Source: Tilletia caries (taxonomy: Eukaryota > Basidiomycota > Exobasidiomycetes > Tilletiales > Tilletiaceae). From it: 64,000 bases of DNA. Positions 51,799-63,791 of this stretch are shown here, piece by piece. The translations under genes were made by a program, and so were the position numbers. The DNA is taken from NCBI GenBank assembly GCA_032718865.1, contig JALUTQ010000041.1, positions 1,364,001 to 1,428,000 of the forward strand, given 5' to 3'. Each line of letters begins with the position of its first letter. The first letter of the stretch is position 1. A model generated the notes under the pieces. That model saw nothing but the letters and a program-made list of their open reading frames with translations, ran no database searches and was not told the DNA's origin.

Positions 51799-52939
51799 AT
51801 GCCATACGCACCTCAGCTGGCCTCGGCTCTGGAGTCACTCGCTCTGCCATGGCCTTCTGCACCCCTCCGTCCGGCCATTCTGAACGAGGCCCATTCTGCA
51901 CCCGACTTCTTCGATGATCTGCCCAGTCTCGACAAGTGGTACGTCGCACAATGTAGAGCGAGGGGTCTCTCAGAGAATCATCATCTCGTTTATTCAGGAG
52001 GTCAGCTCCGGTCTCGTGATGAGCTCTGCGAGACGGCAGATGCGCAGAAAGTGAGTAAGGTCCTGTCCAGCTCGAAGATTAATCGCAGAGTCATTGACGG
52101 TCTCCCCTTTACAGACTCCGGGTATGATGAAGGAGGGATCAAAGGGAGATGATGAGCGACCAAAGTTGCTGGTCTGCCACGACTTCCAAGGCGGCTTCAA
52201 CGATCGACCCGACCGCCGAGGTTACACCTTCGAATACTGGTCCCTCGCCGATGCCTTCATCTACTTCTCCCACCGACGCATCTCCTGCCCTCCCATGGGG
52301 TGGAACACGGCAGCAAGTCGACATGGAGTGAAAATGCTTGGAACGGTGTGAGCTTCGTTCTTGATTTGCCTCTCTCTATTGCCCTGCACGCTGACGATGA
52401 CTTTTTGTTCTTTCGCCAGAATCTTCGAATGGAAAGAGGCTATCCCTGAACTCTCTCTCCTACTTCGGGGACCACACGACTCCTACTCACCCCTAAAGCC
52501 TCCTCTCCGCTACTCTCCATTTTACATCCCCGCCCTCATCGATCTTGCCTTGTCCAGCAACTTCTCAGGCTACCTCATCAACGTCGAACTACCTCTCGAC
52601 CTCGGCTTCTCCGTCTCCGGCTACACCTGGTACCCGGACTGGCTCCGCCCCACCTCGGCCGCGGAGAAGGACGAGATGCAACGCAATGCCAGAAGACTTC
52701 GGGCGTGGGTTGCCCTCTTGCGATCCGAGGGGCAACGACGCTTTCGAGAGGCCGGACGCGGGGAGGACGAGTGGACTGTGCTTTGGTATGATTCGGTCAC
52801 GAGGGAGGGCAAGCTTCAGTGGCAGGACGCAGTGACGAGGGAGAATTTATCCTTCTTGGAGGTTAGCGATGGGATCTTTACCAACTATACGTGGGCTCGA
52901 CCGCCGAAGCCGAAGATCGAGCAGCCGGACATGCCCGGT
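51799..52939 (+). pseudogene. GH85 endo-beta-N-acetylglucosaminidase, 5' part (interrupted)
   Basis: GH85 ENGases release N-glycans by cutting the chitobiose core in the cytosol. Exons 51799-52050, 52115-52347 and 52420-52939 encode the first 335 residues. Family blocks are clear: LLVCHDFQGGFNDR, FIYFSHRRISCPPMGW, HGVKMLGTVIFEW, GYLINVELPLDLG with the catalytic Asn and Glu of the INxE motif, VLWYDSVTREGKLQWQDAV, and DGIFTNYTW. The frame then enters foreign DNA at 52940. The missing part resumes in frame at 63792. As it stands the protein would end after about 45 unrelated residues at 53077. The catalytic pair is retained but the barrel is incomplete, so loss of function is likely. Confidence 0.9.
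52930..52939. repeat. Direct repeat at left edge of the 10.8-kb insert
   Basis: CATGCCCGGT, repeated at 63782-63791. This is the likely target-site duplication. Confidence 0.8.
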
Positions 52940-54092
52940 ACTTGGTCAATGGCCTCCAAGGTCCCCCAGGTGCAGAACGCCTTAAGACCGGCGGACGTGG
53001 CTTGGGTCTCCTTGAGCATCTGGATCGTCTTCTCAAGGTTGGGGTCTCCGGGCTCAAGGGCCTCAAGGGCGGTTTAGGTCTCCTCGAACAGGCGGGTCAT
53101 CTCGAGCGCGGTGAAGCCGAAGGCGGTGGCCTGGGCGAGGAGGGGCATGAGACGACGTGGTGGATGGGGTAGTCGAGAATCTGGGTTTCGAGCGCGGCTT
53201 GCGGGAGGACCTGAACTGTCTTCGTACGGCGGCGTATCGGACGGCAATGATGAGTGCCTTCTTGGCAGTGTTGGCGGCGTCCGCGACCATGGCTGTGCGG
53301 CCTTGGAGCAGAGCACCGTAAATAAGTCTGTAAGAGAGCATACAAGTCAGAAAACGGTTGTGAAGCAGCATGTATGCGTGTTAAAAGGACGCGCTGTGAA
53401 GAGGATACTCGCTGCTGAAGCGGGGGCTCTCGCACCTCACCCTCGCGTGTGACCTGTGTGTCCTTCATGAGCATGTATGCGCGAGGAACGCGGACGCTTG
53501 TGAATTGAATGAAGCCTGTGGCCTAAAGAGAGAGAAAGATGAGTGACTTTACAAAGATAAACGAGCCGCCAATGGAGTTCGAGACTCACCGTTGTCGATA
53601 CCGTCACGTCCCATCTTCTTTCCGATGTCACCGACGTTGGTACCGGGCAGAAGCTGGAGGCTCTTGGGGTCACGGACCGATACGATGAAGGTCTTGGTAC
53701 CGTAGCGCTTGCCGTTGACGACGAGCTGGGCAAAGACGGAGCTGTGTGTGGCGGACTAGACGCACCTCCGATCCACCATTTTGTGGCGCCGAGGTTAAGG
53801 GTGTGGACCACAGCTGGTCGGTCCTTTCCGCTCGAGACCGGCGACGTTGGAGCCGTGGGCTGTTGGAATGCAGGAAACATGTGAGCATGACAAGGAGACT
53901 GATGAGACGTGTTCCCATCCAAAAAGGTGTGTACGCACCAGCTCGGTCATGCCGAAGCAGCCGTACATGCCCTGGCATGAGATGCAGCCCTTGGCGCTAC
54001 CACGGATAGTCTGTTATTCGCAAAGAAATAAGAAGGAGATAAGAGAAGTGAAAGAGAAAGACGCGCGTGGTGCTATCTACTCACACCAAATT
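52940..54092 (-). pseudogene. Acyl-CoA oxidase fragment with introns
   Basis: Minus-strand blocks of peroxisomal acyl-CoA oxidase (first step of beta-oxidation) are seen in order. They are GCISCQGMYGCFGMTEL (about 53940-54005), AHGSNVAGLE (after an intron), LGATKWWIGGA, SSVFAQLVVNGKRYGTKTFIV, GFIQFTSVRVPRAYML-like, MVADAANTAKKALIIAVRYA, LMPLLAQATAFGFTALEMTRLFEE, and finally LKAFCTWGTLEAIDQ at the insert edge. Introns keep GT-AG borders, so the copy came from DNA and not from mRNA. A TAA follows FEET, and the frame shifts after the IGGA block. Both ends are missing (N-terminal flavin domain start and C-terminal domain). It is a captured, dead fragment. Confidence 0.87.
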
Positions 54093-54093
54093 T

Positions 54094-63523: not shown

Positions 63524-63781
63524 CGTGAACGAGTCACACTCACAGTGACTTCATGTTTTCCCACGCTCTCTCGTTCTCCCGCTTCCCCGTTGATCATCTT
63601 TTCTTCGACCTCAATCCCGGAAAACACACACTTCACAACTTCATGGGTGCTGCATCTGTCAGTGTTCTGAGCAATCAGGCCGCTGCGATGAGCTAGGCAC
63701 CTACCTGTATACACAGTGGTTCAGTCTTCTAGCTTGTTCACAGCAGGTTAGATGGCGAGACCTAAAATGGAACATTTGTGC
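63524..63781 (+). other. Non-coding right end of the insert, candidate guide RNA region
   Basis: 258 bp between the Fanzor stop and the insert edge hold no gene. A small inverted repeat (GTCAC...GTGAC, about 63532-63550) follows the stop. In OMEGA systems the guide RNA scaffold often occupies this position, with the guide read from flanking DNA. No scaffold fold was verified here. Confidence 0.35.
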
Positions 63782-63791
63782 CATGCCCGGT
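63782..63791. repeat. Direct repeat at right edge of the insert
   Basis: CATGCCCGGT, identical to 52930-52939. Confidence 0.8.

What the first reader, a model, noticed from the sequence alone, without database searches (positions are those of the whole stretch)
52930..63791. A 10.8-kb Fanzor-bearing segment splits a GH85 gene in frame
GH85 codon 335 ends at 52939 and the next codon is at 63792. The same 10 bp (CATGCCCGGT) stands at both edges, so deleting the insert plus one repeat copy restores a continuous reading frame through the GVDVFGRG-like block. The insert has no recognisable transposase and no terminal inverted repeats. It carries gene fragments and a Fanzor. That combination matches no element class I can name and may be a new type of gene-capturing mobile segment.
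Basis: partly seen in the sequence, partly recalled or inferred. Interest (0 to 1): 0.95.

Follow-up and report, generated by a model that had tools for sequence, protein, structure and literature searches.

The report
Gene-capturing Fanzor element inside GH85
In a wheat bunt fungus, a 10.8-kb stretch of DNA carrying a Fanzor (an RNA-guided DNA-cutting enzyme), two unnamed companion genes and pieces of ordinary genes sits inside a sugar-cutting enzyme gene, apparently moved there as one block, and looks like an unusually large example of a rarely described kind of mobile element with one fixed and one variable end.

Summary
A 10,842-bp insert (52940-63781) splits a GH85 gene between exact 10-bp repeats. 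Four full-length GH85 proteins from other Tilletia run uninterrupted through the site. The only T. caries/T. laevis match starts downstream of it, so the insertion is probably shared by the caries/laevis/controversa complex. The insert is a patchwork: fragments of acyl-CoA oxidase, a repeated LYR-like gene, a PDK-type kinase and MKT1, all antisense, pieces of repeats, and a Fanzor1 with two companion genes, a tandem-RRM protein and one with a weak eIF4E-like fold. Both companions were found only beside a Fanzor (3 of 3 places each), and two copies of the trio diverged together under purifying selection. Captured pieces are about 4.4% decayed while the GH85 halves are intact, which favours a composite that formed first and then moved as a unit. 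There are no terminal inverted repeats. The right end recurs at two other loci; the left end is host-gene sequence. That resembles 'one-ended' Fanzor1 elements described in 2013 (CRe-1/2/3, MCi-2), so it is not a new class. What moves it is not shown. The scale of gene capture and the companion genes are new as far as searched.

The parts
52424..52939 (+). GH85 exon left of the insert
   Evidence: PF03644 E 9.7e-27 for ORF 52352-53074; 94% identical over 172 aa to T. walkeri P0003 up to DMPG
52930..52939 (+). left copy of 10-bp direct repeat CATGCCCGGT
52940..54089 (-). captured acyl-CoA oxidase fragment, non-coding parts included; forms the left end of the insert to within a few bases
   Evidence: C1:2197798-2199014, 93.5% of aligned bases; donor ORFs carry ACOX domains
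54090..54420 (.). tandem repeat of about 128-bp units
   Evidence: self-comparison, 85-89%
54442..54902 (.). two pieces (54442-54747, 54846-54902) of a dispersed repeat also at C7:1217152
   Evidence: 78% and 88%
55656..56133 (-). fragment of a repeated LYR-like gene (Pfam hit below cut-off)
   Evidence: C36:1069230, 94.6%; further copies on C27 and C5
56142..56794 (-). fragment of a PDK/BCKDK-type kinase gene
   Evidence: C13:419486, 94.3%; donor ORF PF10436 E 2.5e-42
56811..56864 (-). second short piece of the LYR-like gene
   Evidence: L055 2789-2842, 90.7%
56866..57579 (-). fragment of the MKT1 gene
   Evidence: C35:169590, 93.7%; donor ORF PF12246 E 2.4e-67
57591..57807 (.). piece of a dispersed repeat; homology stops at 57807 in three of four other copies (at 57800 in the fourth)
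   Evidence: C27:523692 97.7%; also C13 twice and C23
57874..58845 (+). gene A: tandem-RRM protein, 323 aa
   Evidence: AF2 and Foldseek to HuR/TIA-1/U2AF65; 3 genomic places, all beside Fanzor
59739..60802 (-). gene B, 249 aa, exons 60802-60530, 60386-60283, 60187-59863, 59786-59739; weak eIF4E-like fold
   Evidence: exons read by eye against P0014; fold
60909..61142 (.). fragment of a non-autonomous derivative of a DIRS-like retroelement
   Evidence: L013 96.1%; pieces of both ends of L033/L034
61229..63523 (+). Fanzor1 gene, first ATG at 61229, inferred 75-bp intron 62999-63073 (open in frame)
63436..63774 (+). right-end region shared with C3:1749371 (98.5% of aligned bases) and, in two pieces, C36:1209508
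63746..63769 (+). constant end motif GGTTAGATGGCGAGACCTAAAATG, three exact copies in the genome
63782..63791 (+). right copy of 10-bp direct repeat
63792..64000 (+). GH85 right part; goes on outside the window as one ORF (L051:293-2137, 614 codons)

Best explanation
The segment is a non-autonomous, DNA-level mobile composite. Shown: a 10.84-kb block lies in GH85 between 10-bp repeats where relatives have none; it carries host-gene fragments, a Fanzor1 with open frame and catalytic motif, and two conserved companion genes; its right end recurs at two other loci, while its left end is host-gene sequence. Supported, not proven: the fragments were captured and had begun to decay before the block entered GH85. 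Inferred: it spreads by one-ended replicative transposition. Copying or transfer starts at the fixed right (3') end and runs leftwards through Fanzor and genes B and A into whatever lies beyond, stops at no fixed point, and is joined into a staggered break. This would explain the single fixed end, truncated or rearranged short copies, short duplications, absence of inverted repeats, and accumulation of foreign gene pieces on the 5' side. The enzyme is probably supplied in trans (Helitron-type Rep genes abound in this genome). Fanzor may help by cutting or by biasing repair, but nothing here tests that.
For: Empty site in relatives and exact 10-bp repeat. Patchwork of unlinked sources, with 1-16 bp of unassigned sequence at the four closest joins. 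Capture looks older than insertion: donor-window differences by codon position are 41/929, 41/927 and 82/928 (4.4, 4.4, 8.8%), as for a freely decaying copy against a constrained donor. The captured pieces hold 3 new stops and, by my count of that call's list, 18 frame-breaking indels in 2,995 bp, against 0 in 2,358 bp of GH85 flank (P 7e-8; leaving out the oxidase piece 6 in 1,845 bp, P 5e-4; leaving out also indels near piece ends 4, P 0.006, conditional P 0.037). Residues shared by four intact GH85 proteins changed at 11 of 295 (16 of 300 with five misaligned ones kept) against 81 of 928 codons in the captured pieces (Fisher P 0.002 or 0.035). No RIP-like bias: 64 C>T/G>A against 51 T>C/A>G, 67 transversions. 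Right end at 3 of 3 loci that hold the motif, the two others truncated or rearranged; C3 98.5%, C36:1209508 100% over 56 bp and 93% over 68 bp, i.e. recently spread. Precedent PMC3627910. Helitron_like_N: 60 matches in this genome. Trio: dS 0.73 (A), 0.80 (B exon 1), 0.81 (Fanzor exon 1), dN/dS 0.26, 0.135, 0.23 between L036 and L037.
Against: Only three copies of the right end exist and one (C3) shows no flanking repeat; the 7-bp repeat at C36:1209508 has a chance level of 1.6% (326 of 20,000 random pairs). No Helitron in the genome was shown to share the right end; the 24-base end motif with up to 3 mismatches has no other match. The 3' hairpin is not better than shuffles (z -0.27 and -0.36) and CTRR at the 3' terminus is not met. 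In L036/L037 the trio has another gene order, no defined element ends and no sign of recent movement, and the short Fanzor fragments L038/L039 are not 3' ends, so 3' over-abundance is not seen for Fanzor itself. The dating test weakens to P 0.006-0.037 on its strictest count, the indels cannot be assigned to donor or copy, and the GH85 halves could be intact because they are still under selection.
Confidence: 0.43

Rival explanations
1. Repair capture: a pre-formed linear or circular piece of DNA holding the composite was joined by end-joining into a staggered break in GH85, perhaps one cut by Fanzor; the 10-bp repeat is the filled-in overhang and no transposition machinery was involved.
For: No transposase in the ORFs scanned, no terminal repeats, left end is plain host sequence; short filler at joins. 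SpuFz1 leaves 5' overhangs and MmeFz2 3' overhangs (PMC10432273, passages).
Against: The right end coincides with the end of the sequence conserved at two other loci, which an arbitrary fragment would not. The overhangs reported for the Fanzors tested are shorter than 10 nt.
Confidence: 0.26
2. A TIR-less or terminally damaged MULE (Pack-MULE-like): a Mutator-type transposase in trans moved it and made the 10-bp duplication.
For: 10-bp duplication is in the Mutator range (recalled); 97 MULE-domain matches in this genome; one MULE inside this window has 84-bp TIRs and a 9-bp TSD; fungal Fanzor1 elements with MuDR-like TIRs and 9-bp TSDs are described.
Against: No TIR at the insert ends, captured host DNA reaches to within a few bases of the left end, and the one MULE examined here makes 9 bp, not 10.
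Confidence: 0.13
3. Assembled in place: a break in GH85 was repaired by repeated template switching among unlinked loci, making the patchwork at the moment of insertion.
For: Patchwork of unlinked donors with short fillers; the acyl-CoA oxidase donor resembles the target just upstream (1,318 of 200,000 random 16-mers score as well, P 0.007); the four gene pieces have similar identities (93.5-94.6%), as one event would give.
Against: Captured pieces are decayed, GH85 halves are not, unless the halves are still selected.
Confidence: 0.12
4. Retroposition by a LINE-type element (target-primed, 5' truncation, twin-priming inversion) with template switching onto other RNAs.
For: Fixed 3' end, 5' truncation, an inverted piece 5' of the 3' end at C36:1209508 and a short duplication there.
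Against: No A tail; non-coding stretches of acyl-CoA oxidase, the inferred Fanzor intron and the introns of antisense gene B are kept; the four gene fragments are antisense to Fanzor.
Confidence: 0.05

Closest known systems
CRe-1/2/3 Fanzor1 elements of Chlamydomonas (non-autonomous Helitron2; PMC3627910)
   Same: Fanzor1 cargo, no own transposase, fixed 3' end, 5' truncation and internal deletion, TSDs of variable length (about 7-19 bp), some foreign sequence at the 5' side
   Different: There the ends match known Helitrons and 5' TSDs lie after T-rich tetranucleotides; here no Helitron with the same end was found, the target is not T-rich, and captured DNA is kilobases long and partly host genes
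MCi-2 Fanzor1 elements of Mucor (PMC3627910)
   Same: Nearly constant Fanzor-bearing 3' region, differing 5' regions, 11-12 bp TSDs, no TIRs, unclassified
   Different: MCi-2 has 11 copies with several 5' types and a TSD pattern; here one long copy with a 10-bp TSD and host-gene fragments
Fungal MuDR-type Fanzor1 elements (ROr-4, PBl-3, MCi-4; PMC3627910)
   Same: Fanzor1 without own transposase, TSD of about the same size (9 bp)
   Different: They carry MuDR-like TIRs; this insert has none
Pack-MULEs and gene-capturing Helitrons of plants (recalled, no call)
   Same: Fragments of several host genes, introns kept, joined in one element
   Different: Defined element ends on both sides there; Helitrons leave no TSD

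Membership tests
Fanzor1 | Homology to characterised Fanzor1 nucleases | tested here: met
   8gkh E 2.4e-15, 9cf0 E 3e-14
Fanzor1 | Motif D-X(125,275)-[TS][TS]XX-C4 zinc finger-RD (PMC3627910) | tested here: met
   Read by eye: VDPGK, TSSYCPDC...CTSETCRARC, DRDLLG; no activity tested
One-ended Fanzor1 element (CRe-1/2/3, MCi-2 type) | Constant 3' end with variable or truncated 5' side | tested here: met
   3 of 3 loci with the end motif; small number, and not seen for the Fanzor fragments L038/L039
One-ended Fanzor1 element (CRe-1/2/3, MCi-2 type) | TSD of variable length | tested here: inconclusive
   10 bp (window), 7 bp with chance level 1.6% (C36:1209508), none found (C3)
Helitron2 | Terminal hairpins, asymmetric inverted repeats, ends shared with a Rep/Hel-coding element | tested here: inconclusive
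   3' hairpin no better than shuffles; no further match of the 24-base end motif; Helitron ends themselves not mapped
Helitron1 | 5'-TC ... CTRR-3', insertion between A and T without TSD | tested here: not met
   Insert begins ACTTGG, ends TTTGTGC, with a 10-bp duplication
MULE / Pack-MULE | Terminal inverted repeats | tested here: not met
MULE / Pack-MULE | TSD of about 9-11 bp (range recalled) | tested here: met
   10 bp; the window's own MULE makes 9 bp
LINE-type retrocopy | A-rich or repeat tail and loss of introns | tested here: not met
   No tail at 63760-63781; introns kept
eIF4E-like fold (gene B) | Fold shared with eIF4E | tested here: inconclusive

The most novel reading that the evidence does not exclude
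Fanzor, a tandem-RRM protein and an eIF4E-like protein form one cooperating RNA-handling mobile system in Tilletia, in which Fanzor cuts and the partners bind its guide RNA or messenger, and which spreads one-endedly while picking up host-gene segments at its free end: a eukaryotic gene-shuffling system without any classical transposase.
Probability: 0.15. Interest if true: 0.88.

Novelty: new variant of a known kind. Interest (0 to 1): 0.6.

Why it matters
What moves Fanzor-bearing elements that lack a transposase is unsettled in the papers seen here (PMC3627910, PMC10432273, passages). This locus offers a datable case: an undisrupted target known from relatives, an exact duplication, a right end with recent short copies, and captured host DNA whose decay can be measured against the target gene. 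It also links Fanzor to two conserved companion genes, one of RNA-binding fold, which gives a concrete lead on what Fanzor does in fungi. The chimeric antisense ORF (55920-57602, MKT1 fused in frame to the kinase) shows how such elements could build new gene combinations.

Tried and rejected
Terminal inverted or direct repeats of the insert: none above shuffles. Further copies of the composite in the own genome: none seen; only single pieces match elsewhere (counts there are lower bounds). RIP as the cause of fragment divergence: rejected. Similarity of the acyl-CoA oxidase donor to the target repeat as a sign of homology-driven insertion: P 0.007 by 16-mer sampling, left open. Structured right-end RNA: MFE z -1.38, 16 of 200 shuffles fold as well. 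Pfam on genes A and B and their relatives: no family (one sub-threshold SplA hit at E 0.14 on a B exon piece). Profile searches of A and B against PDB sequences: nothing convincing. DUF1917/Bles03 kinship of gene B (an idea from row 1ztp, family name recalled) was not supported by the Pfam scan. The DIRS-like element (L033/L034) was named by reverse-transcriptase and tyrosine-recombinase motifs from memory; no family scan was run on it. Papers: Fanzor with transposon (60 papers, 20 listed); Tilletia controversa with transposable elements (9); Fanzor with RNA recognition motif (2 in the listing, neither title about such a pair); Fanzor with Tilletia (0); Fanzor with gene capture (0); Fanzor with eIF4E (6, five listed, none on Fanzor partners by title); Helitron with one-ended, TSD and fungi (2). 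Read in part: PMC3627910 (passages, section 12), PMC10711439, PMC10432273 and PMC9172201 (passages only).

Full report
Where it lies. The window is G000:C36:1364001-1428000 of a 38.1-Mb genome in 40 contigs. The only database match to gene A is from Tilletia controversa (99%), and the GH85 and gene-B proteins match the T. caries/T. laevis/T. controversa complex. The exact species is not settled. These three species share 98.7-99.6% nucleotide identity in aligned regions (PMC9172201, passages).

The observation. CATGCCCGGT stands at 52930-52939 and 63782-63791 and nowhere else in the window. The insert is 10,842 bp. The GH85 part on the left is 94% identical over 172 aa to T. walkeri P0003 and stops at DMPG. 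The part on the right (L051:293-2137) is a single ORF of 614 codons. Four full-length GH85 proteins from other Tilletia run through DMPGGP without a break. The only listed cluster from T. caries/T. laevis (P0002; 4 members, 9 contigs) is 548 aa long, starts at residue 67 of the right part and is identical to it from there. P0002 and the gene-B protein P0014 both list a longest contig of 500,889 bases. I infer that the insertion is shared by the complex; DNA of those assemblies was not seen.

What the insert is made of. DNA matches in the own genome break it into pieces from unlinked loci: acyl-CoA oxidase (93.5% of aligned bases), a LYR-like gene present several times in the genome (94.6%), a PDK/BCKDK-type kinase (94.3%), MKT1 (93.7%), pieces of dispersed repeats (97.7% for the C27 match), a fragment of a non-autonomous DIRS-like derivative (96.1%), and the right end (98.5%). 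Donor ORFs carry the expected Pfam domains, the LYR-like one only below its cut-off. The four gene fragments lie on the minus strand, opposite to Fanzor. Non-coding parts of the oxidase gene are kept, so capture was at the DNA level. MKT1 and kinase pieces are joined in one open minus-strand frame of 560 codons: 93% identical to the MKT1 donor over 220 residues and 82% to the kinase donor over 187, in the same frame. The stretch 57808-60900 has no close DNA match elsewhere in the genome apart from one of 72% at C13:313762 and short repeat matches near 60804-60839; 54903-55655 has none.

Order of events. Differences between captured coding pieces and donors fall on codon positions 1/2/3 as 41/929, 41/927 and 82/928. 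Equal rates at positions 1 and 2 with an excess at 3 are expected if the captured copy decays freely (about 4.4%) while the donor changes mainly at silent sites. The captured pieces show 3 new stops and, by my count of that call's indel list, 18 frame-breaking indels in 2,995 bp, non-coding parts included and without knowing on which side each arose. GH85 next to the insert shows none in 2,358 bp (expected 16.5, P 7e-8). Without the oxidase piece it is 6 in 1,845 bp (expected 7.7, P 5e-4; conditional P 0.007); without indels near piece ends 4 (expected 5.1, P 0.006; conditional P 0.037). At 174 columns where the four intact GH85 proteins agree, the right part differs at 13, of which 5 lie in the misaligned first residues; the left differs at 3 of 126. 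Like for like, the window's right part differs from trios of intact proteins at 14 of 185, 15 of 192, 19 of 195 and 14 of 198 columns, the intact proteins from each other's trios at 20 of 187, 26 of 193, 29 of 196 and 33 of 200.

The ends. The left end is host-gene sequence to within a few bases of the duplication, with no terminal repeat shared with the right end. The right end is a recurring sequence: the 24-base motif ending in CCTAAAATG has 3 exact copies in the genome and no other with up to 3 mismatches. At C3:1749371 the copy is 335 bp, 5'-truncated, with no flanking repeat found; at C36:1209508 about 120 bp are present as two pieces, one inverted, between copies of CGAGATG. A fixed 3' end with variable 5' side, short duplications and no inverted repeats is what Bao & Jurka reported for CRe-1/2/3 and MCi-2. 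Helitron-type Rep (60 matches) and MULE transposase (97 matches) are both common here, so a machine in trans is available, but neither was tied to these ends. The window's own MULE has 84-bp TIRs and a 9-bp TSD, unlike the insert.

Verdict. Insertion as a pre-formed block: about 0.75 likely. One-ended transposition as the way: 0.43. Repair capture at a staggered break is the main rival. The kind of element has precedents, so the claim of a new class is not upheld; the size and host origin of the captured DNA and the conserved companion genes make it a new variant.

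Noticed in passing
L036 (G000:C34:1136500-1146400) and L037 (C34:1325500-1335400): Conserved trio Fanzor, gene B (possible eIF4E-like fold) and gene A (tandem RRM), about 187 kb apart in opposite orientation, dS about 0.8, under purifying selection.
   Followed up: yes
window 37960-40375: A MULE with 84-bp terminal inverted repeats (99%) and a 9-bp target-site duplication ACTGGCTAC; MULE domain hit at about 38880-39164.
   Followed up: partly
L033 2334-7803 and L034 2299-7839: About 5.5-kb DIRS-like retroelements, 86% alike, with reverse-transcriptase and tyrosine-recombinase-like ORFs (named by motif from memory); L013 and L035 look like internally deleted derivatives.
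   Followed up: partly
window 55920-57602, minus strand: Open frame of 560 codons that fuses MKT1 and kinase pieces in frame, a possible chimeric gene; expression unknown.
   Followed up: partly
L009 about 2505-2628 (G000:C36:1209508 region): About 120-bp insertion of right-end pieces, one inverted, between 7-bp repeats CGAGATG; looks like a rearranged short copy.
   Followed up: yes
L052 (G000:C13:25500-33800), 1996-2027 and 6743-6798: The 57776-57807 and 57750-57807 sequence occurs there in opposite orientation about 4.8 kb apart, perhaps the two ends of another transposon.
   Followed up: no
L037 318-398: Perfect 39-bp inverted repeat with a 3-bp spacer just beyond gene A.
   Followed up: no
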